A program made the position numbers and the translations under genes. This document shows, in pieces, positions 8,363-26,813 of a stretch of DNA of 64,000 bases. The first letter of the stretch is position 1. Every line of letters starts with the position of its first letter. The DNA is from Ignavibacteriales bacterium (GTDB lineage: Bacteria; Bacteroidota; Ignavibacteria; Ignavibacteriales; SURF-24). The notes under the pieces were generated by a model. The model had not been told where the DNA came from. It searched no databases and saw nothing but the letters and a program-made list of their open reading frames with translations. The DNA is taken from NCBI GenBank assembly GCA_026390815.1, contig JAPLFH010000006.1:124001-188000 (forward strand), written 5' to 3'.

Positions 8363-8363
8363 A

Positions 8364-9718: not shown

Positions 9719-10297
9719 ATGATAACAGCAAAAATATTGCTATATATTTCGATGGCTATCTGGATTGTAGTTGCAGTAAGGCAATATGGCAGTATTTTAT
9801 TTCCTTATTTTTTTATTTTGGCAATTACTGACCCAATTAACTTATTGATAGGAATAATATTTAGAATAAATCCACCACAAATATTTTTAGCTTCTTCAAT
9901 ACTTGTATTTATCTTTCTGAACAGCCAGGCTGGATTAAAAAAGAATTTTATTACGTCCGTTATATTACTTACTATAATAACACCATTTACTTTTTTTGTT
10001 AAGGGAGACATAATAAGATTTATGATGGTGGTTGTTCAGGTAATGATATTATACAGGTTACTTAAAATATTTTTTATGGCAATGGTTGATAAAAGAGAAA
10101 TTAATTTGTTTTATGCCGGACTTATATTATATACAATTACAATAATAATTAAATTTTTTATTATGATACTGAAGATAAAAACAGGGATATTATATTTTTG
10201 TTTCACTTCTGCATTTGAAATATTTATTGGGGTGTTCTATTTATTTATAAATGAAAACAGCGAAAGAATAAAGATTAGATTAAGAGACGATTTATAA
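9719..10297 (+). CDS. Polytopic membrane protein, unknown function
   Basis: A 192-residue, very hydrophobic protein with about six predicted membrane segments and a short charged C-terminus (NENSERIKIRLRDDL). No family motif recognised. It starts 8 bases after the exported CPPICF protein, so the two are co-transcribed from promoter 1. Possible roles are partner, export component or immunity protein for the upstream product; the sequence alone does not decide. Confidence 0.7.
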   Translation: MITAKILLYISMAIWIVVAVRQYGSILFPYFFILAITDPINLLIGIIFRINPPQIFLASSILVFIFLNSQAGLKKNFITSVILLTIITPFTFFVKGDIIRFMMVVVQVMILYRLLKIFFMAMVDKREINLFYAGLILYTITIIIKFFIMILKIKTGILYFCFTSAFEIFIGVFYLFINENSERIKIRLRDDL

Positions 10298-10481: not shown

Positions 10482-10665
10482 CTTGATTTTAGAATCAATT
10501 AGATATTTCCTGCAATACAAAGTAGAATTAATTCATAGATACTGCACCTTATTTAAAAACCACAGGAAAATTTTAAATTAAAAATACGTAATAATACGTA
10601 TTGACCATGTTATATCTGATTATTAAAATGGTAACGAGATTTAAGATTAGTAAAAAACAAAAAAG
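10482..10665 (+). repeat. Module leader repeat, copy A
   Basis: Recognisably the same sequence as 13530-13711 and 19704-19876, but more diverged. It starts at CTTGATTTTAGAATCAATT, contains the operator-promoter and ends at the mauE-type ATG at 10666. Copies B and C are much closer to each other than to A. Confidence 0.85.
10583..10629 (+). promoter_or_regulatory. Double-palindrome operator and promoter 2 (module A)
   Basis: The operator at 10583-10602 differs from the others by one base in the first half (AATACGTAAT, then AATACGTATT). It overlaps a good -35 box TTGACC (10601-10606), followed by a 17-base spacer and the -10 box TAAAAT (10624-10629). The spacer is conserved with modules B and C. 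Confidence 0.8.
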
Positions 10666-10912
10666 ATGATTGAAAATTCTTATAAATATATTGCTGCAAA
10701 TCTTTCACTGAATAAATTATTCTATAAATATGATTCCAAATAAGTTATATCTAAAATACATGTTAGTAAAATTATTGGCTAAAGAAAATAAGAAAGAAAA
10801 AGCAAAATTAATATGTAATGATATTCTTGAATCAAAAGTAAAGGTAAACTCAGCTGCTGTTTTACAAATGAAAGAAGAAATAAAATATTTACCAGCATCA
10901 ATAAAGAACTAA
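10666..10912 (+). pseudogene. mauE-ligase deletion scar (module A)
   Basis: The first part (10666-10743) starts like the mauE genes of modules B and C (MIENSYKYIAANLSLNKLFY) but stops after 25 codons. From 10730, in another frame, 60 codons match the C-terminal TPR tail of the O-antigen-ligase-like protein at 14263-16080: MIPNKLYLKYMLVKLL here against MIPHKIYAKYLLVGLY there. One internal deletion of about 2.1 kb, joining mauE codon about 20 to the ligase tail, explains both pieces. The junction is at a shared TAT/AAATATGAT stretch. The promoter and downstream genes remain, so the scar is probably transcribed as leader. Confidence 0.85.
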
Positions 10913-10953
10913 ACGGGGATTAATTATTAATATAATAATAATAGGAGTAACCA

Positions 10954-11253
10954 ATGAAAATTTTTATTAAAAAAAAACTTACAAAAACAACAAAAGCATT
11001 CATTATTGCTTTTTTTGCCATTATAATGTTTGTCAATGTTAAAATATCTTTAAACCCTTCTAGTGATGGAAATATTGATCTAATGGGTCTCAAGATGTCC
11101 CTGTCCATTCCATCAGCATATGCAACTGGTAATTGTAATCTACCGTGTTTTTACAGTGGGTGGTATAATGATTGTGTCGTCTTTCACGATGGACCTTATT
11201 GTCTACTTACATATGGTTGTCCTGCTGAAATTCATTGTCATTACATGCAGTAA
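10954..11253 (+). CDS. Exported Cys-rich peptide, module A
   Basis: A 99-residue precursor. A basic N-terminus (KIFIKKKLTKTTK) and a hydrophobic core (AFIIAFFAIIMFVNVKI) are followed by a linker (NIDLMGLKMSLSIPSAYA) and a tail with seven Cys residues (CNLPC, C, C, C, CPAEIHC). The linker matches the module B peptide (INLLGLDFSIFTSSTFA) in position and pattern, so a late cleavage after AYA or TFA is plausible. The layout recalls Bacteroidota NVEALA-type peptides, which also sit beside propeller lipoproteins, but the NVEALA motif itself is absent. A strong AGGAG site lies 7 bases before the ATG. No known mature activity. Confidence 0.8.
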   Translation: MKIFIKKKLTKTTKAFIIAFFAIIMFVNVKISLNPSSDGNIDLMGLKMSLSIPSAYATGNCNLPCFYSGWYNDCVVFHDGPYCLLTYGCPAEIHCHYMQ

Positions 11254-11424
11254 TAATTCAGTGATGGTGATAAAATACTACCGAAATATTTTTTTGGTGG
11301 CGAAAAATAATTGCCAGGATTATAAAAATCAGTTTTTCACTAAAATTCTAGAAAGCTTTGTAGGATATCAAATACTTTTAAAATCTAACCCACAGATGTG
11401 GATTAGTTATATTTTGAGAATTAT

Positions 11425-12516
11425 ATGAAAACAAAGAATTTACTATTACTTATTGCAATTATATTTTGCTCATGTTCTAAAGAACAGAATAAATACGTAA
11501 ATGTAAAATTTAAAGCTAAAGGTGAAATAATATTGAAGGATACGCTTAAATATATTTATTCAAAATCTTCAGTATATGTTGGTCTTATTCGAGACATAGA
11601 AATCATTGGAAATAATATATATATATCAGATAGGGCTAATTGTAAAATACATGTATTTGATTTGGGGTTAAATTATTTAAAAAGTAGCAATGGTTTCGGG
11701 CATGGACCATCAGAATTTGCTTCCCCTCAATATCTGTCAAATAATTCAGGAAATTTAATTGCATATGGGCCAGGTGAAGGATTAAAATTGTTAGATTCAA
11801 GTTTTTTTATTGTAAAAAAAATTAAATCACCAACTAACTACATAACGAATTTTGCAAATCCAGTTTATTTTGATGGAGATAAAATATGGGCAACAGGTTT
11901 TAATAAAATGCCAATTAATCAGCAAAGAATTAGCGATATAACTACTGTGATAATATTTAATAAAGAAGGATCATTAATTAAAGCATTTTGTAATTTTGAT
12001 AAAGATTATGATATAAATATTAATAATAAATACTATGAAAGTATGAGAGATGCTTTAATATCAGAAGGATTTAATAATACTTATTTTGTTTTACAACGAG
12101 CAACATACAAATACCATCAGTTTAACAAGAAAGGGAATTATATACAAACTTATTTCTATAAGCCAAAATATATTAAAAGTCCACCCGATATAAGTATTTC
12201 ACAAGCCAAATCTTTGAATAATGACGATTTTTTTAAAAATATAGTTGCTCAAACATCTTTTTACAAGTTTTTTGCTTTTGATATAACTAATAATTTACTG
12301 TTTATTAATTATATAAATCAGAAATTCGAAATGATGAAATCGAGATCATATACTGATTCGGAAAGTTATCTTTGTGCAATAAATAAGGATGGGGAATGTA
12401 TATACGATAATAAAATTGAAGGGTATGTCTTTGCAATTAAAGATGGATATATCTATACCGTAGTTGAGGAAAGTGATAAATATTTATTAATATACAAATA
12501 TCAAATAATATTGTGA
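11425..12516 (+). CDS. 6-bladed beta-propeller lipoprotein, module A
   Basis: A 363-residue lipoprotein. The signal peptide ends in a lipobox (IIFCSC, lipidated Cys about residue 16). The rest shows NHL/6-bladed-propeller repeats, with the family hallmark G-x-GPSEF (GFGHGPSEFASPQYL, near residue 95) and repeated strands such as NNIYISDRANCKIHVFD. Such proteins are anchored at the outer or inner membrane and have no known enzymatic activity. It lies 171 bases after the peptide gene and overlaps the next gene by 4 bases (GTGA). A partner, receptor or immunity role for the peptide is inference. Confidence 0.85.
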   Translation: MKTKNLLLLIAIIFCSCSKEQNKYVNVKFKAKGEIILKDTLKYIYSKSSVYVGLIRDIEIIGNNIYISDRANCKIHVFDLGLNYLKSSNGFGHGPSEFASPQYLSNNSGNLIAYGPGEGLKLLDSSFFIVKKIKSPTNYITNFANPVYFDGDKIWATGFNKMPINQQRISDITTVIIFNKEGSLIKAFCNFDKDYDININNKYYESMRDALISEGFNNTYFVLQRATYKYHQFNKKGNYIQTYFYKPKYIKSPPDISISQAKSLNNDDFFKNIVAQTSFYKFFAFDITNNLLFINYINQKFEMMKSRSYTDSESYLCAINKDGECIYDNKIEGYVFAIKDGYIYTVVEESDKYLLIYKYQIIL

Positions 12517-13085
12517 TAGTGTTAAAAAATAAATACCTCATATTATTAATAGCTATTATAAGTGTTATAATTCTTATCATTCTAATATTTCTTAATAATC
12601 AAAAAGTAATTTTGACTGAAAAATTAAAGGAAATGGAAGGTTCTATAAATAAATATGAATTGATTAATAAAAATATATTAAAACGTAGTGAAGTTGAAGG
12701 AAAATACATCTGGGATATTGGTATATTAGCTCCAGAAGTCAGTAAAAAGAAAATACTGGATCTTACTAAAAAATCATATAAATTGTTTTATTGGAAAGAT
12801 ACCTTAGTTTGTGAAAAATGTTATTACTTACATCTTTGGTCAATAGCCAAAGAAGTTGGTTTTAAAAATGTTATCATTTTATATAATAATAAATATGAAT
12901 TCATGAAAAAAGATTTTATAAACTCAATATTTGTTGAAAACCCTATAGTTATAAGAAGGTTTGCAGAAATAATAATATTCGTTGATTCTGAAGGAAAAAT
13001 ACTTTACGCGGAATTCCCTGAATATGGCTTTTCACATTCCTCGGAAAATTTTTATGATATTGTTAAAAGGTATATAAAAAAATAA
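12513..13085 (+). CDS. Membrane-anchored thioredoxin-like protein, module A
   Basis: A 190-residue protein starting with GTG inside the upstream stop (4-base overlap, translational coupling). One N-terminal membrane anchor (about residues 8-26) is followed by a short coiled-coil-like linker and a thioredoxin-like domain with CEKC at residues 100-103 and a FVDSEGKILYAEFP strand region. The orientation puts the CxxC in the periplasm. It sits at the same place as the CxxC proteins of modules B and C. It probably oxidises, reduces or isomerises Cys residues of the co-encoded peptides, with MauE as possible redox partner (inference). Confidence 0.8.
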   Translation: MIVLKNKYLILLIAIISVIILIILIFLNNQKVILTEKLKEMEGSINKYELINKNILKRSEVEGKYIWDIGILAPEVSKKKILDLTKKSYKLFYWKDTLVCEKCYYLHLWSIAKEVGFKNVIILYNNKYEFMKKDFINSIFVENPIVIRRFAEIIIFVDSEGKILYAEFPEYGFSHSSENFYDIVKRYIKK

Positions 13086-13213
13086 TAGCCTTACATCGAG
13101 CAAAAGAAGTAATTATTATTCAATTTGGTAACAATAATATAAATATACCAGTTGTGTAAATTAAAAAATAGATTTTAAACGAAAACGGCGCAAAAAGTGT
13201 TAAGTAAAGTAAG

Positions 13214-13527
13214 TGTACTGGTTCAGTGGAAACAGGAATTTTGGTATTGAGAAATAAGGTAGAAAATCAGTTAGCATTTCTAGCCTCACATCTGTTTAAT
13301 TTAGTCTTTGAAAGTTTACCCTCAAGTATATAAAGTTTATCTTCAATGCGATTCAATAAAAAATCTTCAGGCGTTAGGAAGTATAAAGAACTATGCAATC
13401 TTTTTATATTATAAAATTCGATATAATTGGCAACTTGCTTTCTAACATCAGCAAGATTAACCCTTGAAGATTTCATTAAGCATTTTTCGTGAACGGTTCT
13501 ATGGTACTGCTCAATTTTACCATTTTG
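13214..13527 (-). mobile_element. Truncated IS3-family element
   Basis: Minus-strand remnant of the same IS that lies at 18260-19703. Its right end (TGTACTGGTTCAG on the plus strand, at 13214) is intact. The 70-residue open frame at 13267-13476 matches the transposase C-terminus (YIEFYN.KRLHSSLYFLTPED). Homology stops inside TCAATTTTACCATT near 13527, where the module B leader begins. This copy lacks the SALGG insertion present in the longer copy, so it shows the ancestral transposase sequence there. 13086-13213 holds no gene. Confidence 0.85.
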
Positions 13528-13529
13528 CG

Positions 13530-13711
13530 CTTGATTTTAGAACCAATTAAATATTTCTGCAAGACACAATATAACTACTGCACCAATATCATCCCTTATC
13601 TAAAAACTATAAAAAATATTTTCACTAAAAATACGTATTAATACGTATTGCCCATGTTATATCTGATTATTAATATGTTAACCAAAATTAAAATTATTAA
13701 AAATAAAAAGG
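13530..13711 (+). repeat. Module leader repeat, copy B
   Basis: Nearly identical to 19704-19876 (only scattered differences) and related to 10482-10665. Identity with copy C continues into about the first 50 codons of mauE and then falls off. Confidence 0.9.
13630..13676 (+). promoter_or_regulatory. Double-palindrome operator and promoter 3 (module B)
   Basis: A perfect 20-base palindrome at 13630-13649 overlaps TTGCCC (13648-13653). A 17-base spacer and TAATAT (13671-13676) follow. The expected start of transcription near 13683 places the operator centre at about -43, a class II activator position. The leader to the mauE ATG would be about 29 bases. Confidence 0.8.
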
Positions 13712-14167
13712 ATGATTGAAAATTCTTATAAACATATTGTTGCAAATCTTTCACTGAATAAATTATTCTATTATACAGGTTATTATTTTATTGCTGCAGT
13801 ATTGTTTGTAAGCGGAGTAAGCAAAATAATTGATCCGCAACCTTTCTTAGAAACGTTAAACTTAATAAAATATTTACCGGAAGAAGTTAGAATTGCAATA
13901 GCAACTGCACTGCCTATGATCGAACTAGTGCTTGCCGTTTTAATTATTGGGAAGATAAAAGTAAAAATTACTTTGCTGCATACAACAGTTTTATTCTCTG
14001 CATTTTTCGCTTTTAGCTTATATGGGACAATTGCTGGATTTAATGCAGACTGCGGTTGTTTTGGTAATACTGTTAAAAGTGAGATTGGTTGGGGGATGGT
14101 AGTGAGGAATTTTTTATTTATGATAATTGCTACTATTGTAGTGTCAAATGTGAAACGTCAAACGTGA
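13712..14167 (+). CDS. MauE/DoxX-like redox membrane protein, module B
   Basis: A 151-residue inner-membrane protein with four predicted membrane segments. FVSGVSKIIDPQPF after the first segment is typical of the DoxX/MauE superfamily. NADCGCFGN places Cys 114 and Cys 116 at a membrane edge, the CGCFG signature of MauE-like proteins. MauE is needed for disulfide formation in methylamine dehydrogenase, so a thiol-redox role with the module's CxxC thioredoxin-like protein is likely. It is the first gene behind the operator. An inverted repeat (around 14147-14225) overlaps its stop codon and fills the gap to the next gene. Confidence 0.87.
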   Translation: MIENSYKHIVANLSLNKLFYYTGYYFIAAVLFVSGVSKIIDPQPFLETLNLIKYLPEEVRIAIATALPMIELVLAVLIIGKIKVKITLLHTTVLFSAFFAFSLYGTIAGFNADCGCFGNTVKSEIGWGMVVRNFLFMIIATIVVSNVKRQT

Positions 14168-14262
14168 GACGGTAAATATTGAATAATTGATCTAATTTCC
14201 CTTTTGACTTCTGACATTTGACGTAACACTATTATATTATTGACAAATAAAAGATAGGTATT

Positions 14263-16080
14263 ATGAGCGGTGTGAATTACAAAAAGATTTTAACGGCATT
14301 ACTAAGCTTAGTTTTTATAACAGGCTTTTTACAATCAAACACACTTATGGATGGAATTGATTCGGCAAAAAGGTTTTACTTTTATCTTATAATGTCTCTA
14401 ATCATAACCTTTCTTGGAATAATAATTTTATTAAGAAATAAAAAAATAGAGTTAACCTTTAATAAGCTCGATACTGCTGTTATATTATTTGCATTTTATT
14501 TATTCGTCAGATTGTTATTTACAGAACATACGAACCTTTGGAATGAACAATTCATAATACACGTTCTTATGCTTACTTTTTATTTTATATTAAAGAATGT
14601 TTTACAGCCGGAAGAAAACAAAAAGTTAATAGTCTTTGTCTTTTTAATTGCCGGAATGCTGCAAGGAGCGTATGGATTACTTCAACTTTATGGTTTCATT
14701 CCTTCAAATAATCCTTACTTCAAAATTACAGGTACGTTTGGGAATCCTGATTCTTTTGCCGGATATATAACTTCAATTATACCTTTTGCCTTTGGTGTAT
14801 ATTTATTTAATAAAGACACTAAAGAAAAAAGTAATATGAAATATGCAGGTTTAGTTACATTTTTAATATTACTTCTTGCACTGTCAGCCACACAAATAAG
14901 AGGTGGGTGGTTTGCTGCAATAGTTTGCTGTGCTTTTATTTCTTTTAACAAATATAAAGCTGAAATAAAAAAATATTTGCATAGTAAAATCAAGTTAGCA
15001 TCAGCAATAATAGCCGGTGTTGTGGTGTTAAGTATTTTTGTAATATTCTTATTCAATCTAAAACCTGATTCTGCAAATGGAAGGCTGTTTATCTGGAAAG
15101 TAACGACAAATATAATTAAACAATACCCGGTATTTGGGGTTGGATACGATAGATTTGCCGTAGAATATGATAATTATCAGGCGGATTATTTTGCAAGCGG
15201 TAAAGGAACCGGATATGAAAAGAAAATTGCCGGGAATGTAAACAGGGCACACAATGAATATCTGGAAATATTTGCAGAGAGTGGGGCAATAGGTTTAGTC
15301 CTGTTTATTTTAATATTATACAGTGTTTTTAGAAACGCTAAAAAGTTGTCTGATGAAAAAATAAAGGAACCATTAGAGCTTTATATTTGTGCTAAGGCGT
15401 CGTTTATCGCGATTTTAATCTTTTCGTTAACATCATTTCCGTTTCATATTCTACCTACGTTCATTAATTTTTATTTCCTGTTAGGATTCATTTCAACAAC
15501 TAAAAACGTCTCTTATATCTTTAATATTCCAGTCATATTAAATAGAGTAATAATAATACCTGCAGCAGTTGCTGCCGTAATGTTGTTACAGCATACAATT
15601 AATCAATATAATTCTTATCAAACCTGGAGAAAATGTATTGAATTATCTTTTGCAGGAAATTATCCAGCATCTGAAAGTTTATTTGAAAATGTAAAACCCC
15701 AGCTTAAGAATAATGCAGAATTTCTTTTTAACTATGGTGGAATGTTAAGTCTGATTGGAAGATATAAGGAATCGATAATTTTACTTGAAGATGCCAAAAA
15801 AGGATTTACTGATCCCAATATTTATATATCATTAGCTAATAGTTATGCTAGCTTAAACAACTTTACTGTTGCTGAAAAATATTATAAATATTCCGCCAAT
15901 ATGATACCACATAAAATATATGCAAAATATTTATTAGTTGGATTATATAAAAGAATAAACAAAATAGATGATGCCGTTGTTATAGCAAAGGAAATATTAG
16001 AAACAAAGGAAAAAATTATATCTCCAGCAACCAAAGAAATTAAAAATAAAATGAAAAAATTGATAGAAAACAATTTATAA
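14263..16080 (+). CDS. O-antigen-ligase-like (Wzy_C) membrane protein with TPR tail
   Basis: A 605-residue protein with about ten to twelve membrane segments and a Wzy_C-type ligase domain: GTFGNPDSFAGYI near residue 155, TQIRGGWFAA near 210 and NRAHNEYLEIFAESGAIGL near 330. TPR-like helices follow from about residue 470 to the end. Known members transfer lipid-linked glycans (WaaL ligase, PglL O-oligosaccharyltransferases) or polymerise O-antigen in the periplasm. No other glycan genes lie nearby, so here it may modify a co-encoded product such as the secreted peptide or propeller (inference). Module A keeps only its last 60 codons and module C lacks it. Confidence 0.83.
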   Translation: MSGVNYKKILTALLSLVFITGFLQSNTLMDGIDSAKRFYFYLIMSLIITFLGIIILLRNKKIELTFNKLDTAVILFAFYLFVRLLFTEHTNLWNEQFIIHVLMLTFYFILKNVLQPEENKKLIVFVFLIAGMLQGAYGLLQLYGFIPSNNPYFKITGTFGNPDSFAGYITSIIPFAFGVYLFNKDTKEKSNMKYAGLVTFLILLLALSATQIRGGWFAAIVCCAFISFNKYKAEIKKYLHSKIKLASAIIAGVVVLSIFVIFLFNLKPDSANGRLFIWKVTTNIIKQYPVFGVGYDRFAVEYDNYQADYFASGKGTGYEKKIAGNVNRAHNEYLEIFAESGAIGLVLFILILYSVFRNAKKLSDEKIKEPLELYICAKASFIAILIFSLTSFPFHILPTFINFYFLLGFISTTKNVSYIFNIPVILNRVIIIPAAVAAVMLLQHTINQYNSYQTWRKCIELSFAGNYPASESLFENVKPQLKNNAEFLFNYGGMLSLIGRYKESIILLEDAKKGFTDPNIYISLANSYASLNNFTVAEKYYKYSANMIPHKIYAKYLLVGLYKRINKIDDAVVIAKEILETKEKIISPATKEIKNKMKKLIENNL

Positions 16081-16151
16081 TAATTCTAAATAAACTTAAT
16101 TTCTAACCCAACAAAATTGTTGGAAAATTACTAACACTAAAAGGAGTACTT

Positions 16152-16448
16152 ATGTCAGTAAAACAAAAAATAACAAGTAAGATTATCGCCAAAATAGGTG
16201 GGATATCTTTATTTATATTTTTAATGTTATTTAACATCAAAATTGCATTTAGTGCAAATAGTACAAACTCAATAAATTTATTAGGGTTGGATTTTTCAAT
16301 TTTCACTTCTTCAACATTCGCTTCAACAGATGTAAAATATCAAACCACAGTAAATTGTACACGTTATGAAGGGATTTATACAATCGTTGGAACAAGACAG
16401 AAATGCGATTTAGGTGGGCAGCATTGTGAGCCAACAATTTGTAATTAA
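16152..16448 (+). CDS. Exported Cys-containing peptide, module B
   Basis: A 98-residue precursor with a strong AGGAG site 7 bases before the ATG. The N-terminus is basic. A hydrophobic core (IGGISLFIFLMLFNIKIAFS) leads to the linker SINLLGLDFSIFTSSTFA and a 35-residue tail with four Cys residues (NCTRY, KC, QHC, TIC). The linker aligns with NIDLMGLKMSLSIPSAYA of the module A peptide, while the tails are unrelated. That is the pattern of conserved leader and variable core. It sits 71 bases after the ligase-like gene and 61 before the propeller gene. Confidence 0.78.
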   Translation: MSVKQKITSKIIAKIGGISLFIFLMLFNIKIAFSANSTNSINLLGLDFSIFTSSTFASTDVKYQTTVNCTRYEGIYTIVGTRQKCDLGGQHCEPTICN

Positions 16449-16509
16449 AAAAACATAATAGTGTAGTAGAATCAATATTTTATTACTCTGAAAAAAATAG
16501 GCTTATAGA

Positions 16510-17649
16510 GTGAAAAAAATCTATTTTCTTGTATTAATATTTTTTATATCCTGCTCAAAGGAAAAAGAACAAGATATTCCTGTAAATTTGTACAATAATT
16601 CAACAGTAATTAATATTAAAAATCCTGATGGAAAATTTAAATTATCTAAAATTATAAAAAATATAAAGTATATTCAATTAGATGAAAGTTTAGAAGGTGC
16701 GATTGGTGAAGTAGCGAAAATTAAAGTAATCAACGATAAAATATATATACTAGATGAATATTCTGCTAAATCATTATTCTGTTTTGACATAAATGGAAAG
16801 TTTTTATTCAAAATTGGAAGACATGGTTCCGGCCCAGGAGAATTAATAAATCCAAAGGATTTTGATGTTGATGATTACAGAATTGAAATTTTAGATAATC
16901 ATAAACAATCATTTTTAATATATGATCTAGAAGGCAATTTTATTAAAGAAATGCATTTTAACTTTGCCGTGCATTCCTATACTAAATTGGATAACATTTA
17001 TTTATTATCACCTGGTTATCAAGTTTGGGGATATGGATATAATTATCATCTTTTTATTGCTGATGAAAATATCAAAATAAAAGAAAAGTATTTTAAAATT
17101 GAAAAGGAATTAGAAAATTTAGATTATTTTGGAGAATATCAACTTTTTAAATCTAGAAACACAATTTTATATAAAGATACTTGGGATAATTATATTTATA
17201 GTTTTGCTAAAGAGAAACTATATCCAAAGTACAAATTGGATTTTGAGAATTATAATTTCGACTTTGATGAAATCAAAAAAAATAAAAATAAACTCGCACC
17301 ATATCTTTTCCGAACAAAAGTTGTTGGAGAAATATTTAATATTTGTGACCTGAAGAAATATTTATATTTTTCATACATTATAGAAAATCGTAAATATGAT
17401 ATGTTTTTCGACAAAAAATCGAATTTATCATATAGTGGATTAGTTGAGAATGATATAGATGGATTTCCCTTATATTCTTCACTTTGCATTTATAAAGACA
17501 AAATTTACGGTATTATCAACCCCATGGCGATTGTTAATGCGGCAGCAACAAAAAATTATGTTTATAAAACAAAAAAACTGGTTGACTATGCCAAAAGTAT
17601 TAATGAAACAAGTAATTATTTAATAGGAATATATACTTTAATTGAATAA
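16510..17649 (+). CDS. 6-bladed beta-propeller lipoprotein, module B
   Basis: A 379-residue lipoprotein starting with GTG. Its signal peptide ends in the lipobox IFFISC, with the lipidated Cys near residue 15. Propeller signature GRHGSGPGELINPKDF lies at about residues 98-113, preceded by blades of the type DKIYILDEYSAKSLFCFDINGKFLFKIG. It is the counterpart of the module A and C propellers but clearly diverged from both. The next gene overlaps its last 8 bases. The exact partner is unknown; position suggests that it works with the peptide just upstream. Confidence 0.85.
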   Translation: MKKIYFLVLIFFISCSKEKEQDIPVNLYNNSTVINIKNPDGKFKLSKIIKNIKYIQLDESLEGAIGEVAKIKVINDKIYILDEYSAKSLFCFDINGKFLFKIGRHGSGPGELINPKDFDVDDYRIEILDNHKQSFLIYDLEGNFIKEMHFNFAVHSYTKLDNIYLLSPGYQVWGYGYNYHLFIADENIKIKEKYFKIEKELENLDYFGEYQLFKSRNTILYKDTWDNYIYSFAKEKLYPKYKLDFENYNFDFDEIKKNKNKLAPYLFRTKVVGEIFNICDLKKYLYFSYIIENRKYDMFFDKKSNLSYSGLVENDIDGFPLYSSLCIYKDKIYGIINPMAIVNAAATKNYVYKTKKLVDYAKSINETSNYLIGIYTLIE

Positions 17650-18244
17650 AAAAAATATATACTTACGTTATATTGTTATATTTTTTTTAGGGGGAGGGAT
17701 AATAGGATTGACCTACAATAATATATCAAAATTGACATTAAAAACGGATAGGAAATCTTTAACTGATGAGTTTAAAAATTTTTACGAATTTCAACTGAGA
17801 GCGGAAAGTAAATCAATCCCCCAGGAAATGGCTATATTTAATGATAAATCACAAATTATTACCTTAAGTAACTTAATTGGAAACTCTCCAAAGATAATTC
17901 TAAAATATTCCGAATTAGGTTGTTCAGTTTGTATAGATAAGCAGATTGAAAATCTTAAAAAAGTATCGCAAAAAATAGGAAACCAAAATATAATAATATT
18001 AGCTTCTTATAGGCAGAAAAAAAATTTAATATTGTTTAAACGTCTTAATAAATTAAATTTTGAAATATATAATATGAAAGAACAAGAATTTGGTCTAGTT
18101 CCAGAACAATATCATTTGCCCTACTTTTTTATTATTGATTCTACAATGCAAATGAAATATATTTTTATTCCTTCTAAAGATTTACCTGAGTTGAGTGAAG
18201 TATATTTCCGATATATTATTGAAAAGTTTTTCCATAAATATTAA
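17642..18244 (+). CDS. Membrane-anchored thioredoxin-like protein, module B
   Basis: A 200-residue protein with a TTG start overlapping the propeller stop by 8 bases, which implies translational coupling. An N-terminal anchor (YIVIFFLGGGIIGLTY) precedes a thioredoxin/TlpA-like domain with GCSVC (Cys 94, Cys 97), and the later YHLPYFFIIDSTMQMKYIF carries the cis-Pro-type position expected in this fold. It is the last gene of module B; the IS begins within about 20 bases. A role in disulfide handling of the exported peptide is inferred. Confidence 0.8.
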   Translation: MNKKNIYLRYIVIFFLGGGIIGLTYNNISKLTLKTDRKSLTDEFKNFYEFQLRAESKSIPQEMAIFNDKSQIITLSNLIGNSPKIILKYSELGCSVCIDKQIENLKKVSQKIGNQNIIILASYRQKKNLILFKRLNKLNFEIYNMKEQEFGLVPEQYHLPYFFIIDSTMQMKYIFIPSKDLPELSEVYFRYIIEKFFHKY

Positions 18245-18320
18245 TCTAATTTAATAATATGGATGGGAAAGGAATTTCCAAATTATAATATTTGTAAAAC
18301 AAAAGATGGAGATTCCGACA

Positions 18321-18654
18321 ATGAGAGAAAGAAAACACTACTCGGCTGAACAAAAAGTAATTATTCTAAGAGAACTTCTTGAAAACAATATTCCGATCAG
18401 CCAGTTAGCTGAAAAATACGGGGTACATGTTAACGATATTTATAACCTGCTTGCAGCAGGCAAGTTGGAAAAAGAGACTTTTTGAATCAGCTTCATTAAT
18501 CTTTTCACCCAAAAACAATGAGACAAAACAAACCAGCGATAAAGAAAAGAAGATTCAGAACCTGGAAGACAAACTAAAGAAACGTGACGAAGCAATTTCT
18601 TTCTTGCTAAGAGAGAACATAGAAATAAAAAAAAGTATAGATGGGGAGATCTAA
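18321..18654 (+). pseudogene. IS3 orfA (HTH), frameshifted
   Basis: The frame starts MRERKHYSAEQKVIILRELL, a typical helix-turn-helix orfA, and runs to VNDIYN. A palindromic insertion of 19 bases (CTGCTTGCAGCAGGCAAGT, about 18449-18467) then shifts the frame. The remainder (WKKRLFESASLIF..., ending at 18654) continues in another frame with a coiled-coil-like segment. Removing exactly 19 bases restores N-W-K-K, the expected family sequence. The A-rich run at 18627-18635 (A AAA AAG) fits a programmed -1 frameshift site to orfB. Confidence 0.85.
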
Positions 18655-19650
18655 ATGGACTTTGGGTTGAACCGGACATTAGAGATTCCATCATTGAGTT
18701 TGTTGAAATGATAATTTCTAAAACTGACATATCTAACAAAACTATGTTAAGCCTTATAGGTATTACCTCCAGTAAGTATTACTCCTGGAATAACAGGAAA
18801 GGAGCGGCAAATAATCACAATGGTAAAATTCCTAAAGAGAATTGGCTGCTGGATTGGGAAAAAGAAGCCATTATGAATTATGCTAAAAAACATATTGCTG
18901 AAGGCTACCGCAGACTTACCTGCCTTGCCGCAGGCAGGTATGATGATGGATGAAGACATTGTTGCTGTTAGTCCCTCTTCTACTTACAGGGTACTTAAAT
19001 CAGCCGGTTTACTTAACCGTTGGAATAATGTTAAGAAAAACCTTAAAGGAAAAGGATTTGATCAACCTATTGTTCCACATCAGTCCCGATTAAATCGGGA
19101 GCATGTTGATATTAAGTATGTAAACTTCAAAGGTGCTTTTCTTTTTCTTATTTCCGTTATCGATGGTTACAGCCGCTACATTGTTCATCACGAGCTAAGG
19201 CAAACTATGCAGGAATTTGATGTTCAGATTACTATCCAGAGAGCGTTAGAAAAGTACCCTGGCTACAAGCCAAGGATTATTTCTGACAATGGTTCTCAGT
19301 TTATTTCTAAGGACTTTGCTGAATATCTGAAGTTTGCCGGTTTGCAGCATATCAGAACTTCTATTGCTTATCCACAAAGTAATGGTAAAATTGATAGGTA
19401 CCATAGAACCATTCACGAAGAATGCTTAATGAAATCTTCATTGGTTAATCTTGATGATGCCAGAAACCAATCCGCCTTAGGCGGAGCTAACTATATTGAA
19501 TTTTATAATTCCAAAAGATTGCATAGTTCTTTATATTTTCTAACACCAGAAGATTTTTTATTGAATCATATTGATGATAAACTTAAATTACGTGAGGATA
19601 AACTTTCAAAGGCTAAATTAAACAGAGCTGAGGTTAGAAATGCTAACTGA
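18636..19650 (+). pseudogene. IS3 orfB transposase (DDE), frameshifted
   Basis: The frame is open from the slippery site (WVEPDIRDSIIEFVEM...) to EGYRRLT, then broken by a palindrome of about 20 bases (18916-18937). It continues in another frame as MMMDEDIVAVSPSS. The rve integrase core shows EHVDIKYVN and RIISDNGSQF, but the third acidic residue is Asp (NGKIDRYH) where Glu is usual. Two in-frame palindromes add SRLNR (19082-19098) and SALGG (19473-19487), relative to family sequences and to the truncated copy at 13214-13527. Confidence 0.88.
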
Positions 19651-19703
19651 TTTTCTACCTTATCTCACTATACCGAAATTCCTGTTTCCGCTGAACCAGT
19701 ACA

Positions 19704-19876
19704 TTAGAACCAATTAAATATTTCTGCAAGACACAATAGAACTACTGCACCAATATCATCCCTTATCTAAAAACTATAAAAATATTTTACTAAAAATACG
19801 TATTAATACGTATTGCCCATATTATATCTGATTATTATTATGTTAACCAAAATTAAAATTATTAAAAACAAAAAGG
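19704..19876 (+). repeat. Module leader repeat, copy C
   Basis: Starts immediately after the IS right end with TTAGAACCAATTAAATATTT and runs to the mauE ATG. It is almost the same as copy B throughout, including the spacer between -35 and -10. Confidence 0.9.
19795..19841 (+). promoter_or_regulatory. Double-palindrome operator and promoter 4 (module C)
   Basis: A perfect 20-base palindrome (19795-19814) overlaps TTGCCC (19813-19818). A 17-base spacer and TATTAT (19836-19841) follow. The arrangement is identical to promoter 3. Confidence 0.8.
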
Positions 19877-20335
19877 ATGATTGAAAATTCTTATAAACAT
19901 ATTGCTGCAAATCTTTCACTGAATAAATTATTCTATTATACATGTTATTATTTTATTGCTGTAGTATTGTTTGTAAGCGGAGTAAGCAAAATTATTGATC
20001 CCCAACCATTGTTAGATACATTAAACTTAATAAAAATTTTATCGGATGAAATAAGAATTGCGATAGCAACAGCTTTGCCAATGGTTGAATTAACTATTGC
20101 GGCGCTTTTAATTGCCAGAGTGAAAGTAAAATTAACTTTGGTTTTAGCAAGTATTTTATTTTTCTCATTCCTTGTATTTAGCGTTTATGGGACAATTGCC
20201 GGATTTAATGCAGAGTGCGGGTGTTTTGGCAAAATTTATAATCAAAAATTTAATACAGTTCTTATAATAAGAAATATCATTTTTTTTATAATAAGTATAA
20301 ATTTATGGTTTAATAAAAAGAAAAAAAAATTATGA
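19877..20335 (+). CDS. MauE/DoxX-like redox membrane protein, module C
   Basis: A 152-residue four-segment membrane protein. Its N-terminal third is nearly the same as the module B protein (MIENSYKHIAANLSLNKLFY and FVSGVSKIIDPQP). It keeps the CGCFG motif (NAECGCFGK) but diverges afterwards and ends in a Lys-rich tail. It overlaps the propeller gene by 4 bases (ATGA). Here no ligase-like gene follows, so MauE is coupled directly to the propeller. The role proposed is the same: redox partner of the CxxC protein at the end of the module. Confidence 0.86.
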   Translation: MIENSYKHIAANLSLNKLFYYTCYYFIAVVLFVSGVSKIIDPQPLLDTLNLIKILSDEIRIAIATALPMVELTIAALLIARVKVKLTLVLASILFFSFLVFSVYGTIAGFNAECGCFGKIYNQKFNTVLIIRNIIFFIISINLWFNKKKKKL

Positions 20336-21492
20336 AAAAATTATTATACTTATTGGCAATTTTTATTATTTACTTTATTGGTTGTAAAGAAAATAAAAAT
20401 AATGTTGAACATATAAAGTTTAGTAATAAAAATATTTCATCAAATTTACTCAATTTTCAAGGTAAAATTGAAATTACAAATAGTAAAGATTATAAAACAT
20501 ATTCTATTTATAAATTAATTGAATTAAATGACACAAGTTTTTTATTTTTAGATCCATACTCGACATCCATATTTTTTGTTGAAAAAAATAAGATAATAAA
20601 GCGAATAGGAAATAAAGGAAACGGACCCGGGGAATTTGCCTCTATTCTTGATTTTACACTTGATAACGAAAAGAATATTTATGTCCTGGACATTTATGGA
20701 CATAAAGTTGGAAAATTTGATTCTCAAGGAAATTTCATAAAAAATTTCCAATTATCATTTAATCATAGAACACCTTCAAAAATAAAATTTTATAAAAATT
20801 ATTTTATTATTAGTGCAGAAAATAACCTAGAAAATGGTGCAACAAAGGATAAATTCAGTTTTCTTGAATATAAAAATGTTTCTTACTTAAATGTATATGA
20901 TAAAGAATTTAATTATATAAAAAGCTTTTTAAATCCATCTAAAGAATTCTATCACACATATGGTACCTTTGCCAGACCTTTCGAAACATTTGTTACATTT
21001 TGCGAATGTCCAAATTATTTGTTAGCAATTTCACAGGAAGGATTTTATCGTATAAATAAGTTTAGCAAAGAATTGAATTTAGAAAATATTATAGAGATAA
21101 ATGATGAATCTTTTATAAAAATAGATAAAAATAAAATATCTTCTTACAAATTAATAAATCAGAAACCAAATTTTTCGGAAATGAAAATAGGTGAAATTAT
21201 CGGAAATCATACTGTACCTGTAAACATGTTAAATAGTGCACCATTTTTAATAATTGAATTTCGGGAACCAATGGAAAATTATTTTCCGCAATATGTAGAG
21301 AATTATTCTTATAATTTTCATTATGATTTATTTCGTGTAAGTTCAACTAAATTGGAACCATTGGCTTCGAATATTAAAATAAAAGGAAGATTAATAGGTG
21401 TTGGTGAGGTAAATTCATTTTACTTTACAGAGAATACTGTGGAGAAAGATACTTTAAAGTATCTGACAATTTCTAAGTATAATATAAAATAA
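20332..21492 (+). CDS. 6-bladed beta-propeller lipoprotein, module C
   Basis: A 386-residue lipoprotein (lipobox YFIGC near residue 18). The propeller signature GNKGNGPGEFASILDF lies at about residues 96-111, followed by NEKNIYVLDIYGHKVGKFDSQGNF. The other blades are less regular. It is translationally coupled to mauE by a 4-base overlap, and three small peptide genes follow. In modules A and B the peptide gene precedes the propeller; here the order is reversed. A binding or immunity role toward the peptides is possible but not shown. Confidence 0.86.
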   Translation: MKKLLYLLAIFIIYFIGCKENKNNVEHIKFSNKNISSNLLNFQGKIEITNSKDYKTYSIYKLIELNDTSFLFLDPYSTSIFFVEKNKIIKRIGNKGNGPGEFASILDFTLDNEKNIYVLDIYGHKVGKFDSQGNFIKNFQLSFNHRTPSKIKFYKNYFIISAENNLENGATKDKFSFLEYKNVSYLNVYDKEFNYIKSFLNPSKEFYHTYGTFARPFETFVTFCECPNYLLAISQEGFYRINKFSKELNLENIIEINDESFIKIDKNKISSYKLINQKPNFSEMKIGEIIGNHTVPVNMLNSAPFLIIEFREPMENYFPQYVENYSYNFHYDLFRVSSTKLEPLASNIKIKGRLIGVGEVNSFYFTENTVEKDTLKYLTISKYNIK

Positions 21493-21508
21493 ATTATTTG
21501 GAGGTTTT

Positions 21509-21694
21509 ATGCGTAAAGTGTTTTTTTTAGTTATAGTTAGTATAATTATCTTTTCAACATTTATTATCTCATATGCTTCATACGCTAAACTTCGATATTT
21601 GCCTGCTAGGCAAGTATTTGATCCAATTACAAATTTAACGTATCAGGAATGTCCTGTCTTAATCTCAACAGAATATTGTGTGGAAGTCCGTTAA
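21509..21694 (+). CDS. Exported Cys peptide C1
   Basis: A 61-residue precursor with a strong GGAGG site. The signal peptide core (VFFLVIVSIIIFSTFIISYA) has a probable cleavage at SYA. The mature part of about 36 residues contains VFDPITNLTYQECP and ends EYCVEVR. It aligns with peptide C2 (TFNPITLQHNCDCP...GCYC), but the first and third Cys of the CxCPx6CxC pattern are both missing, leaving a single pair. Confidence 0.78.
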   Translation: MRKVFFLVIVSIIIFSTFIISYASYAKLRYLPARQVFDPITNLTYQECPVLISTEYCVEVR

Positions 21695-21729
21695 ATAAAA
21701 TATTTCACTAAATAATTAAAGGAGCTGTT

Positions 21730-21915
21730 ATGAAAAAAATATTCTCTATTCTTCTAATTGGTCTCTTTTATACAGGTTCATTTATCATTGGTTTAGCAAA
21801 AGAAAAACCAGTAGATCAACCTGGTAAAGACACATTTAATCCTATTACCCTACAACATAATTGTGATTGTCCGCAACTAATTGTACAGGGTTGTTATTGT
21901 CGAATGATAAACTAA
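21730..21915 (+). CDS. Exported Cys peptide C2
   Basis: A 61-residue precursor with an AAGGAG site. The signal peptide is KKIFSILLIGLFYTGSFIIGLA. The mature part ends with NCDCPQLIVQGCYCRMIN, a CxCPx6CxC motif that can form two disulfides. It is a paralogue of C1 (shared F(D/N)PIT and CP motifs), 35 bases downstream of it. Confidence 0.78.
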   Translation: MKKIFSILLIGLFYTGSFIIGLAKEKPVDQPGKDTFNPITLQHNCDCPQLIVQGCYCRMIN

Positions 21916-21930
21916 AAAAGGATGGAAAAA

Positions 21931-22122
21931 ATGAAAAATAACATTGCAAAAATCACATTAATTATCTTAAGTATTATTACTTTTCTTGCTATAAATATTA
22001 ATACTTCAGATGCAAAGCCGGTTGCATATAATGGTTGGCAAGTTGTGATAGTTCCCACACAATACTACGTATGTGAATGTCCACATTGGTTAGCTATAAC
22101 TTGTACGTGTACAATATGGTAG
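21931..22122 (+). CDS. Exported Cys peptide C3
   Basis: A 63-residue precursor. The Met at 21931 is preferred over that at 21922 because the AAGGA site (21917-21921) is correctly spaced only for the former. The signal peptide (IAKITLIILSIITFLAI...SDA) is followed by a mature part ending VCECPHWLAITCTCTIW. Its CxCPx6CxC spacing is identical to C2 although the surrounding sequence differs. A stable hairpin follows the stop. Confidence 0.78.
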   Translation: MKNNIAKITLIILSIITFLAININTSDAKPVAYNGWQVVIVPTQYYVCECPHWLAITCTCTIW

Positions 22123-22130
22123 TAATTAAA

Positions 22131-22152
22131 AGGGTTCCGGCAACGGAACCCT
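22131..22152 (+). terminator. Hairpin with GCAA tetraloop
   Basis: A perfect 9-bp stem (AGGGTTCCG / CGGAACCCT) is closed by a GCAA tetraloop (GNRA type). It is followed by an A/T-rich stretch without a strict U-run. It lies between the last peptide gene and the thioredoxin-like gene. It could be a partial terminator or an mRNA-stabilising structure that keeps peptide transcripts more abundant than the downstream gene. Confidence 0.6.
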
Positions 22153-22183
22153 ATAAATATTATATAAAAAAATTCTAATAAAT

Positions 22184-22792
22184 ATGATAAAATTTTTTAT
22201 AAATAATGCAATTTATTTATTTTTATTATGTAGTATTTTACTGTTGATAATTCTTAATCATAAATATGTAATTTTAAAAGAAGAAATAAAACAAAATAAA
22301 GATATTTTAGTTGAAAAAAGAAATATTGAAGAAATTGAGGATAAAATAAAAAAAATATTAATAGGAAAAACTTTAGATTTGAACAAATTTAAAAAATTGA
22401 ATGCTATGCATAACGATAATCATGAAAAATTGCTTATTCTATTAAAATCAAGTTATTGTAAACCTTGTTATGAACAGGTTATAAATTTATACCAAAATTA
22501 TATCAAGAATTATAGGGAATTGACTTTTGGTGTATTATTGCAATCAAAAAATGAACGTGTTAGTAGAAATATGTTGAAAAATGTAAATGTTAGTAATATT
22601 TATTTAGACAAAGAATTTTATTTTTCTAATTTATTAGGTATACCCGATAATATTTCTATAGTTATTTTATTATCAAGAAATAATAGATGTATTTTTTTAT
22701 ATATAGTTGATGATAATTATTTACAAAAAGATATTGCTCAATCAGAAATTTTATTTAATTATTATAATTTATTAAATCATAAAGATATTTAA
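22184..22792 (+). CDS. Membrane-anchored thioredoxin-like protein, module C
   Basis: A 202-residue protein with one N-terminal anchor (AIYLFLLCSILLLIILN), a charged helical linker and a thioredoxin-like domain with SSYCKPCYEQ (Cys 92, Cys 95). The remaining fold is diverged. It is the third copy of this type, each the last gene of its module. It lies 61 bases after peptide C3, beyond the GCAA hairpin. Probable disulfide exchange with peptides C1-C3 is inference. Confidence 0.78.
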   Translation: MIKFFINNAIYLFLLCSILLLIILNHKYVILKEEIKQNKDILVEKRNIEEIEDKIKKILIGKTLDLNKFKKLNAMHNDNHEKLLILLKSSYCKPCYEQVINLYQNYIKNYRELTFGVLLQSKNERVSRNMLKNVNVSNIYLDKEFYFSNLLGIPDNISIVILLSRNNRCIFLYIVDDNYLQKDIAQSEILFNYYNLLNHKDI

Positions 22793-23126: not shown

Positions 23127-26100
23127 ATGTCCTTATCTTCCTTTTCCATAAAGCGTCCTGTTGCAATAACCATGTTTTACCTGGGACTGGCATTTCTTGG
23201 TATTTATTCCTTCAGCAAGATTGGTGTTGATCTTCTACCAAATATCAGCTTGCCGCATTTAATTGTACAAACAACATACTCAAATGCAACCCCTGAAGAA
23301 ATAGAAAAACTTGTAACTGAACCATTAGAATCCGCTGCAGGAACAGTAACCGGAGTAAAGAATATTACTTCTGTTTCCAAGGAAGGAATATCTGTTCTGT
23401 CTGTGGATTTTCTTTGGGGAACAAATATGGATTACACGCTGCTTTCGCTTAGAGAGAAATTAGATAATATAAGATTTGCTTTGCCAAGAGAAGCCGGGAG
23501 ACCAACAATAATAAGAGTAGATCCTTCGGCTACGCCGATAATGACGCTAAGCCTCTCCCCTAGCCCCTCTCCCAAGGAAAGGGGAGAAGAAAGAAACTTT
23601 TCCACATCCAAATACCAAAAGCAGAGTAATGGAAAACAGAGTAAATTTGCAAATGAGAATAAATTGTCGTTCGTAGATTATAATTCTTCGGAAGATGAGA
23701 TTAAAAGATTGATTGATTTGAAGGAAGCGGCAAGGGTTGTATTTAAAAGAAGGTTGGAGCAAATTGACGGGGTTGCACAGGCAGTAATAACCGGCGGACT
23801 TGAAAGGGAAATATTAATTGAAGCTGATCCGCAAAAACTGAACGCTTATAATTTAACATTTGACGATATAAGCGCAGCTTTAAAAGCATCAAATGTTAAT
23901 CTTCCTGCCGGCTCTGTGATGAAAGGACTTTTCAGATACTCATTAAGAACAATAGGCGAATATAAGAACCTTCAGGAAATTGAAAAGACGATACTTAAAA
24001 GGAACGATAACGGAAGTGTTATTCAGCTTTCAGATGTCGTTCCGCAGGGTGGGATTAAAGAGAGCTTTGAAGAACGGGAAGGATTAACGCGTCTGAATGG
24101 TTCGGAAACTATCGGAATATTAATTAACAAGGAACCGGAATCCAATACTGTTGATATTGCACAAAGGGTAAGAAATACAATTATATCTCTTAGAAAAGAA
24201 TATCCGGAGTTTAAACTGGCAATTGTATCCGACCACTCACAGTTTATAGAGAATGCAATCACAAACGTAAAGCAGGAAATTTATTATGGCGGCATTCTTG
24301 CATTTCTAGTTCTGTTCTTTTTTCTTGCAAGCCTTAGAAACGTTTTTATTATCGGTATAACTATACCAGCATCTCTTATACTAACCATATTACTTATGAA
24401 TTTATTTAACATCAGCTTTAATATAATTTCTTTAGGCGGTATAGCACTTGGTATAGGAATGTTATTAGACAATGCAATAATAGTAATAGAAAACGTAACA
24501 AGCTACAGGGAAAAAGGCTTAAGCATTAAAGCAAGCGCAATAAAAGGCACAAATGAAGTTGCAATGCCGATAGTTGCATCTACTCTTACAACAATAGCTG
24601 TTTTTCTTCCATTAGTTTTTTTAAAAGGCATTACTGCTGAGTTGTTCAGAGATCAATCCTATGCTGTTGCGTTTTCATTAGCGGCATCAATTATAGTATC
24701 GCTTACTTTAGTGCCGATGCTTGCAAGCAGGGAAAGGTTTGGTTTTACGTTTAGAAAGGATAAAGTCCTGAATGATTATATTTATGTTAAATATCCCGAG
24801 GGGAAAGGCATAAGAAGAAAAGTATTTTTCTGGCTGAAGTTGCCATTTGTATTATTGATTAAAACAATTGCAGTGTATTCTAGGTTTTTAATAATTAAGT
24901 CTAATCAAATCTCCGAAAGATTTTTTGCAAAATTTTTCAAGAAGGTGAACAAATTTCTTGATAAAACAGTAGAAAAATATGAAACAATGCTTGCCTGGGC
25001 GCTTGATAATAAAAGGATGGTTTTACTTTTAACAATTGTTTTAATAATAATAACCATCTTTGCTGCAGTTGATATGAAGAAAGAATTTATTCCTGATGGT
25101 CCGCAGGATGAATTTGTTGTTGAACTGGTTTATCCACCAGGCACATCTTTAAGAGGGAATGCGGAGTTAACCGGTAATGTTGAAACAGTGATAAAAAACA
25201 TCAGCGGGATTAGCGATGTAATTTCCAATATTGGCAGAGTTAATGAATTTGATTTCCTTAACCGGGAACAAATCTCAGTTAATAAAACCAATATGATAAT
25301 TAAGATTGAGGATACGGAAAGATATTATAAAGTAAAAGAAAAGGTGCAGTCAATTCTTGAAAAGCTGAAAGGAATTAAATATTCGTTCAAGCCTGTTGAG
25401 ACTTCATATTCGCAGATAATAAAACCGTCAAAAAATGATATAGTAATAAAAATAAAGAATAAAAATATAGATGCAGCATTCGAAAAGGGGAATGTCCTGG
25501 TAAATAAAATAAGGAAGGCATCAATTGAGGGTAAAAGCGATGTTAGAATGGGAATTGAAAAAGGGGAACCGGAATACAAGATTACTATTAACCGCGAAAA
25601 GTGTCTTGCTTATGGCATAACAGTAAGTGAAGCAGCGAATCAAATCGTCAACTTAGTAAAAGGAAATGAAGCGACTTATTTTACCGATTTTGATAAGAAA
25701 ATTGGCATTAAAGTAAGGACTGCGGAAAATAACAGGGATGACATTGAGAAAATTCTTGCCAACCCGATAAAGAGCGGTGATAAGAATATCCCGATAAAAA
25801 ATGTGGTGGATTACAAACTAACAGAAAGCTACAACGAGATATGGCACGAAGGGCAGTCAAGAACGGTTTATGTATATGCCGATCTTTCAGGTTCAAGCAT
25901 TGATAATGTAATAAATGAAATAAATAAAGTCGCGAAATCTTTACCAAAGCAGCAAGGAGAAATAATAACTATAGGCGGCGCGAACGATGAAATAAGAAAC
26001 TCATTTTCAATTCTTTATGTAGCTATTATTATTTCTATTTTGCTGATGTACATAGTTCTTGCTTCGGAATTTGAATCGTTCCTGTTTCCATTCATAATTA

Positions 26101-26725: not shown

Positions 26726-26813
26726 CGTTAATATAAGTTATCATTCCTTAATGAAGGATAACATAAAGAATGGTATTTTATTTTTAATTCAAAAAAAATA
26801 ATTGGCTGCCAAA

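What the first reader, a model, noticed from the sequence alone, without database searches (positions are those of the whole stretch)
10482..22792. Three related peptide-redox-propeller modules under one type of promoter
Seen: three modules in a row contain the same kinds of genes. These are a MauE-like CGCFG membrane protein (deleted in A), exported Cys peptides, a 6-bladed propeller lipoprotein and a membrane-anchored CxxC thioredoxin-like protein; a Wzy_C/TPR ligase-like protein is intact only in B. Known: MauE and thioredoxin-like proteins handle disulfides, and NVEALA-type peptides sit next to propeller lipoproteins in Bacteroidota. Inference: this is a peptide production system (signal, toxin or surface factor) with its own disulfide machinery and a propeller partner, with possible glycosylation in module B. 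I know of no description of this combination.
Basis: partly seen in the sequence, partly recalled or inferred. Interest (0 to 1): 0.88.

Follow-up and report, generated by a model that had tools for sequence, protein, structure and literature searches.

The report
Regulated disulfide-peptide export modules
Three neighbouring gene modules each make small exported cysteine-rich peptides together with disulfide-handling proteins and a matching propeller lipoprotein; they share one two-component switch, sit beside an RND export pump, and similar loci occur across Bacteroidota, where no function has been described.

Summary
Modules A, B and C carry MauE (deleted in A), exported Cys peptides, a propeller lipoprotein and a membrane-anchored thioredoxin-fold CxxC protein; Wzy_C/TPR is intact only in B. 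New here: (1) The "one type of promoter" is a 7-2-7 palindrome, TACGTAT-TA-ATACGTA. It occurs four times in the 4.5 Mb genome (one copy with a mismatch), at A, B, C and an overlooked upstream unit that follows a histidine kinase and LuxR-type regulator. In relatives it clusters at the orthologous regulator locus. (2) Modules recur in relatives in the same order; peptides lie beside propellers far more often than beside control genes (44/61 vs 13/182). (3) Leader-defined peptides have an even number of mature cysteines in 30/32, which points to disulfides. (4) An RND pump next to module C has close orthologues in only 10 of 59 genomes, nearly always beside peptide modules. (5) Wzy/propeller/NVEALA-peptide loci across Bacteroidota also carry RND pumps just downstream. 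(6) Mature-peptide similarity tracks propeller similarity, not leader similarity, though few close pairs carry this. Best reading: a regulated system that exports, oxidises and secretes disulfide peptides with a cognate propeller lipoprotein. Whether they signal, kill or bind is open.

The parts
7223..8359 (+). Histidine kinase (N-terminal TM, PAS-like, HisKA_3, HATPase_c)
   Evidence: Pfam; orthologues beside the same regulator and CPPxC gene in relatives
8364..9041 (+). LuxR/NarL-type response regulator (Response_reg + GerE)
   Evidence: Pfam
9197..9212 (.). Operator, 7-2-7 inverted repeat TACGTAT-TA-ATACGTA, before the upstream unit
9279..9707 (+). Exported protein with invariant C-terminal CPPxC (upstream unit, 'm0a')
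9719..10294 (+). Polytopic membrane protein ('m0b'), partner of the CPPxC protein
10585..10600 (.). Operator of module A (one mismatch)
10667..10909 (+). Deletion scar: start of MauE joined to the C-terminal TPR tail of the Wzy protein
10954..11250 (+). Module A exported peptide, 6 Cys in the mature part
   Evidence: leader family
11425..12513 (+). Module A propeller lipoprotein
   Evidence: own profile 1e-75; no Pfam match
12513..13082 (+). Module A membrane-anchored CEKC thioredoxin-like protein
13632..13647 (.). Operator of module B
13712..14164 (+). Module B MauE (DCGCFG)
   Evidence: PF07291 3e-25
14263..16077 (+). Module B Wzy_C/TPR ligase-like membrane protein
   Evidence: PF04932 5e-22; relatives across Bacteroidota
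16152..16445 (+). Module B exported peptide, 4 Cys in the mature part
16510..17646 (+). Module B propeller lipoprotein
   Evidence: PF17170 4e-41; structure
17642..18241 (+). Module B membrane-anchored CSVC thioredoxin-fold protein
   Evidence: structure
18306..19650 (+). IS3-family-like insertion with broken frames between B and C
   Evidence: ORFs and sequence
19797..19812 (.). Operator of module C
19877..20332 (+). Module C MauE
   Evidence: PF07291 5e-23
20332..21489 (+). Module C propeller lipoprotein
   Evidence: PF17170 2e-10
21509..21691 (+). Module C exported peptide 1
   Evidence: own profile
21730..21912 (+). Module C exported peptide 2 (CDCPQLIVQGCYC; conserved in another family, L069)
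21922..22119 (+). Module C exported peptide 3 (CECP...CTC; conserved in L069)
22184..22789 (+). Module C membrane-anchored CKPC thioredoxin-like protein
23127..26510 (+). RND permease 1 (HAE-1 type), co-inherited with the modules
26802..28019 (+). RND periplasmic adaptor (membrane fusion protein)
   Evidence: TIGR01730 5e-58
28029..31199 (+). RND permease 2
   Evidence: homologue L096:984-4097 passes ACR_tran; same cassette order in L200-L202

Best explanation
A two-component-regulated system for making and secreting disulfide-bonded peptides. SHOWN by sequence: a kinase/LuxR-type regulator pair; a shared 7-2-7 operator before the upstream unit and modules A, B and C; precursors with a conserved N-terminal membrane leader and a variable Cys-rich end; a MauE and a membrane-anchored CxxC thioredoxin-fold protein; a propeller lipoprotein beside each peptide gene; an RND-adaptor-RND cassette adjacent and co-inherited. 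INFERRED: the regulator activates the modules; Sec exports the precursor and signal peptidase cuts near the A-x-A site; the CxxC protein and MauE (passing electrons to the membrane) form the disulfides; the RND pump carries the mature peptide across the outer membrane; the lipoprotein propeller is the peptide's specific partner in the outer envelope. The final role is most likely antagonism or cell-cell signalling, with the propeller as immunity or receptor protein.
For: Operator: four sites in 4.5 Mb, all in this locus; the heptamer pattern gives 19 sites in 77 genomes, 12 within 3 kb of the regulator's CPPxC gene and 2 more at modules B and C (positions). Peptide-propeller adjacency 44/61 vs 13/182. 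Even mature Cys counts 30/32 (p 1.2e-7) and 43/46 (p 2e-10); mature Cys 12.7% of residues, leaders almost none. RND1 orthologue (about 62% identity) in 10 of 59 relatives; nine are peptide-module genomes with it at the module locus, the tenth (G015) sits on a 5.5 kb contig. In other Bacteroidota an RND gene lies downstream within 8 kb of the Wzy gene in 29/56 loci, upstream in 3/52. Mature peptide vs propeller similarity r=0.69 over 14 modules, partial r=0.64 given CxxC; leader vs propeller r=0.10 and leader vs mature r=-0.02. CxxC protein has a thioredoxin fold. Precedent: Sec-dependent first-stage export of E. coli heat-stable enterotoxin II followed by a tripartite MacB-family pump (PMC8277102).
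Against: No expression, peptide, disulfide or transport data. The RND pump has no operator of its own in front, and no outer-membrane channel gene lies beside it in the window. Known natural cargoes of RND pumps are, to my knowledge, mostly small molecules; a 3-6 kDa peptide would be unusual. Some modules lack MauE (A, most Bacteroidia loci). The peptide-propeller correlation is carried largely by a few close pairs (r falls to 0.29 without the top four; Spearman 0.14, 40 of 2000 permutations). The parity and adjacency tests treat related sequences as independent.
Confidence: 0.55

Rival explanations
1. Cell-cell signalling: the peptides (or the CPPxC tail of the upstream protein) are pheromones sensed through the kinase, so the operators form a positive loop.
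For: Kinase, regulator, exported CPPxC precursor-like protein and polytopic membrane protein form a conserved unit, with the same operator before the CPPxC gene and before the peptide modules.
Against: The CPPxC gene is found in 54/77 relatives, most without modules, so modules are not its usual signal; the kinase has almost no periplasmic sensor region; each module encodes a different peptide.
Confidence: 0.25
2. Antagonism: the peptides are bacteriocin-like toxins and the cognate propeller lipoprotein gives self-protection.
For: Conserved leader with variable mature part, tandem diversified modules next to IS elements, mature peptide type tracking propeller type but not leader, exporter linkage.
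Against: No activity data; I know of no propeller lipoprotein established as an immunity protein; some propellers have no peptide next to them.
Confidence: 0.3
3. A Mau-like periplasmic enzyme or structural complex: propeller plus small Cys-rich subunit matured by MauE and a MauD-like CxxC protein, not secreted.
For: The part list mirrors the methylamine dehydrogenase maturation set (MauE, MauD-like CxxC protein, small Cys-rich subunit, propeller subunit); MauE is thought to act in disulfide formation of that small subunit (cited in PMC7794033).
Against: The propeller's best solved relative is 4raa and then NHL domains, with no methylamine dehydrogenase heavy chain among the listed hits; mature peptides share little beyond Cys; the RND co-inheritance is unexplained.
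Confidence: 0.12
4. The RND cassette is an unrelated drug pump that only shares the neighbourhood; peptides stay at the cell surface as adhesins or coat.
For: RND pumps are common; no operator precedes the RND in the window.
Against: The orthologue is nearly restricted to module genomes and to the module locus; downstream linkage recurs across Bacteroidota.
Confidence: 0.2

Closest known systems
NVEALA peptide family (PF14055) loci of Bacteroides/Parabacteroides/Petrimonas
   Same: Short exported Cys peptides with an alanine-rich leader end, at loci with DUF5128-like propellers, CxxC proteins, Wzy_C/TPR and RND genes
   Different: Window leaders fail the NVEALA model; the Ignavibacteriales version adds MauE and, here, the two-component operator. 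No functional paper on NVEALA was found
Heat-stable enterotoxin II secretion by MacAB-TolC in E. coli
   Same: Sec-dependent first stage, then export by a tripartite pump (PMC8277102); that the toxin is disulfide-bonded is my own knowledge
   Different: MacB is an ABC pump; here the linked pump is an RND pair with one adaptor, and there is a candidate cognate propeller and dedicated redox genes
Methylamine dehydrogenase maturation (mau) genes
   Same: MauE plus a membrane-anchored CxxC protein, with a small Cys-rich partner and a propeller protein (part list from own knowledge)
   Different: Variable exported peptides, other propeller family, no other mau genes noticed
MauE/MauD-containing candidate RiPP clusters of Streptomyces (decRiPPter, PMC7794033)
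   Same: mauE, once with mauD, beside short precursor genes, proposed to modify precursors
   Different: Gram-positive, predicted only, and the passage read mentions no propeller lipoprotein, RND pump or NarL-type operator
NarX/NarL-type two-component regulation
   Same: LuxR-type regulator and a 7-2-7 inverted repeat (PMC7419079)
   Different: Heptamer TACGTAY rather than the E. coli consensus; signal unknown; linked to a CPPxC exported protein

Membership tests
NVEALA (PF14055) | Match to the Pfam model | tested here: not met
   No match for A and B peptides at E up to 1
NVEALA (PF14055) | Leader homology by profile-profile comparison | tested here: inconclusive
   Leader aligns over 36 columns, probability 85, E 6e-6
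NVEALA-type locus | Peptide beside propeller, CxxC and Wzy_C/TPR genes | tested here: met
   Module B and relatives; Bacteroidia loci
DUF5128 propeller (PF17170) | Gathering score | tested here: met
   B and C pass; A does not, but matches the profile built from the window and relatives
MauE (PF07291) | Gathering score | tested here: met
   B and C pass; A is deleted
Thioredoxin-fold CxxC oxidoreductase | Fold and CxxC motif | tested here: met
   Model of B and PDB hits; all three window proteins have CxxC; Pfam AhpC-TSA below cut-off
Thioredoxin-fold CxxC oxidoreductase | Redox activity on the peptides | not testable with these tools
   Needs biochemistry
O-antigen ligase/Wzy_C | PF04932 gathering score | tested here: met
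   5e-22
O-antigen ligase/Wzy_C | Glycan transfer to the peptide | not testable with these tools
   Needs mass spectrometry
RND HAE-1 pump | Permease and adaptor domains | tested here: met
   (permease below the cut-offs of individual named pumps)
RND HAE-1 pump | Outer-membrane channel partner in the locus | tested here: not met
   None adjacent among the window's predicted ORFs; could be encoded elsewhere
NarL-type regulation | 7-2-7 inverted repeat at target promoters | tested here: met
Methylamine dehydrogenase system | Heavy-chain propeller family | tested here: not met
   Best fold hits are 4raa and NHL domains

The most novel reading that the evidence does not exclude
A phylum-wide secretion system of Bacteroidota and relatives in which paired RND pumps export oxidised ribosomal peptides that pair with cognate propeller lipoproteins, used for communication or warfare; an RND pump with a peptide as natural cargo would be a new kind of secretion.
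Probability: 0.35. Interest if true: 0.9.

Novelty: new variant of a known kind. Interest (0 to 1): 0.76.

Why it matters
NVEALA peptides, DUF5128 propellers and their Wzy_C/TPR neighbours are widespread in gut and environmental Bacteroidota, and I found no functional description. This locus links them to a regulator with a readable operator, to disulfide formation and to a candidate exporter, and names a likely peptide-partner pair. That turns an anonymous gene neighbourhood into a testable secretion pathway and gives a candidate regulated promoter with which to study it.

Tried and rejected
Chance or miscalled small ORFs: rejected by leader conservation, parity and adjacency. Mau enzyme: see rivals. 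Operator conserved letter for letter in all module genomes: no; G053 and G055 lack TACGTAY 7-2-7 sites and show other palindromes. CPPxC protein as part of the peptide system: it is in 54/77 relatives, mostly without modules, so it belongs with the regulator. Peptide-propeller co-variation as proof of pairing: suggestive, weakened. MauE as a universal part: in the 79 Wzy loci only 6 have a MauE match. Other propeller loci (L077-L080, L085, L086, L088) have no peptides nearby (0 of 9). Parity of Cys in the named Bacteroidia loci: too few peptides passed the filter to tell. Literature searches for NVEALA, DUF5128 and the combination gave nothing relevant; only open-access PMC papers were searched.
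Full report
WHAT IS THERE. B is complete: operator, MauE, Wzy_C/TPR, peptide, propeller lipoprotein, CxxC protein. C has MauE, propeller, three peptides, CxxC and no Wzy. A keeps the MauE start fused to the last TPR part of Wzy, so apparently one deletion removed both; its peptide, propeller and CxxC genes are intact. IS3-like sequence lies between the modules.

REGULATION. Aligning the upstream regions shows a fourth copy of the same element before 9279, outside the reported range. The element is TACGTAT-TA-ATACGTA, a 7-2-7 inverted repeat as bound by NarL dimers (PMC7419079). It occurs four times in the genome allowing two mismatches, with no hit for the reversed control. Directly upstream lie a histidine kinase and a LuxR-type regulator, then an exported protein ending in CPPxC and a polytopic membrane protein. 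This four-gene set recurs across the order, mostly without peptide modules (54 of 77 genomes have the CPPxC gene; maps). The pattern TACGTAYNNRTACGTA gives 19 sites in 77 genomes; comparing positions, 12 lie within 3 kb of that gene (G000, G004, G010, G012, G061) and two are modules B and C; five are elsewhere. So the operator most likely belongs to this regulator, and here it also stands before the peptide modules. Binding is inferred, not shown.

PEPTIDES. A leader profile finds relatives in 12 of 294 genomes of the class and in loci fetched by MauE or DUF5128 alone. Among 32 distinct leader-defined peptides the leaders hold almost no Cys, the mature ends 12.7% Cys, and 30 have an even number (p 1.2e-7). 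For peptides defined only by shape and adjacency to a propeller it is 43 of 46 with two or more Cys (p 2e-10). Relatedness makes these p-values optimistic, but mature ends are poorly conserved. Peptide types recur: module A resembles L109 (CN[LI]PC...GCPAEI.C), module C peptides 2 and 3 resemble an alternating pair in L069.

PROPELLER AND CXXC. In module-type loci 44 of 61 propellers have such a peptide within 1.5 kb on the same strand, against 13 of 182 control genes; 0 of 9 in loci with other propeller types. Structure models confirm a propeller (best hit 4raa, Bacteroides fragilis BF0058, TM 0.79) and a thioredoxin fold behind one N-terminal helix. Mature-peptide similarity between modules of different genomes tracks propeller similarity (r 0.69, 14 modules; 0.52, 29 modules; no permutation of 2000 reaches it), while leader similarity tracks neither (r 0.10 with propeller, -0.02 with mature part), and the link of the mature part to the CxxC protein vanishes once the propeller is accounted for. 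Leaving out the four closest peptide pairs drops r to 0.29, and Spearman is only 0.14, so this is a lead to specific pairing, not proof.

EXPORTER. An RND permease, an adaptor and a second RND permease follow module C (for the first two; the third by homology to an ACR_tran protein). The first has orthologues at about 62% identity in only 10 of 59 relatives; nine of these genomes carry the peptide modules, with the RND inside the module locus, and the tenth (G015) has it on a 5.5 kb contig with the adaptor. Relatives show the same RND-adaptor-RND order, once with a propeller inside it (L096).

BEYOND THE ORDER. A scan of named genomes with the Wzy_C/TPR profile returned 79 loci from Bacteroides, Parabacteroides, Phocaeicola, Flavobacteriaceae, KSB1 and others: 55 with propellers, 43 with CxxC proteins, and short exported peptides, several of them Pfam NVEALA. 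With at least 8 kb of flank, an RND gene lies downstream on the same strand in 29 of 56, upstream in 3 of 52. MauE is largely limited to the Ignavibacteriales version.

MECHANISM. I infer: regulator on, precursor exported by Sec, leader cut, disulfides made by the CxxC protein with MauE, peptide passed out by the RND pump, and bound by its propeller lipoprotein. A Sec-then-tripartite-pump route is known for E. coli heat-stable enterotoxin II with MacB-family pumps (PMC8277102); an RND pump in that role would be new to my knowledge. The Wzy protein may glycosylate peptide or surface; untested. Function (signal, toxin, binding) stays open.

VERDICT. Observation confirmed and extended; interpretation partly supported. 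New variant of a known but undescribed gene neighbourhood, with a credible chance of being a new secretion route.

Noticed in passing
window 7223-10294; L074 8611-11241; L211 216-2844; L204, L205, L213 and others: A conserved unit of histidine kinase, LuxR-type regulator, exported protein ending in CPPxC (variable flanking residues) and a polytopic membrane protein, the CPPxC gene present in 54/77 relatives and three times in this genome; its layout recalls kinase/regulator/precursor/membrane-protein pheromone systems.
   Followed up: partly
L074 7653-8015 (G000:C55): A MauE gene with an in-frame stop next to the second kinase/regulator/CPPxC copy: apparently the remnant of a lost module locus elsewhere in the genome.
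   Followed up: no
L069 7367-8445 and window 21730-22119: Two peptide types (one with CPQLIxQGCYC, one with YYVCxCP...CxC) kept as neighbours in two different families, like a two-peptide system.
   Followed up: partly
L089-L091 (G023), L092-L095 (G045): Repeated modules with partial MauE copies before individual peptides; many module contigs end inside the array, so assemblies probably under-report modules.
   Followed up: no
G003:C102:5147-5182 and C137:4559: Cluster of overlapping TACGTAY palindromes away from the known CPPxC gene of that genome; may mark another regulon or a broken contig.
   Followed up: no
L098 1706-1773 (G053:C60): Several TACCTAT-type inverted repeats upstream of MauE, resembling the E. 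coli NarL heptamer (as I recall it) more closely than the window's operator does.
   Followed up: no
L096 10060-10707: An N-acetylmuramoyl-L-alanine amidase gene (Amidase_2) between the last CxxC gene and the RND gene in G053.
   Followed up: no
window 6207-6893: A 229-aa protein with no Pfam match upstream of the kinase.
   Followed up: no
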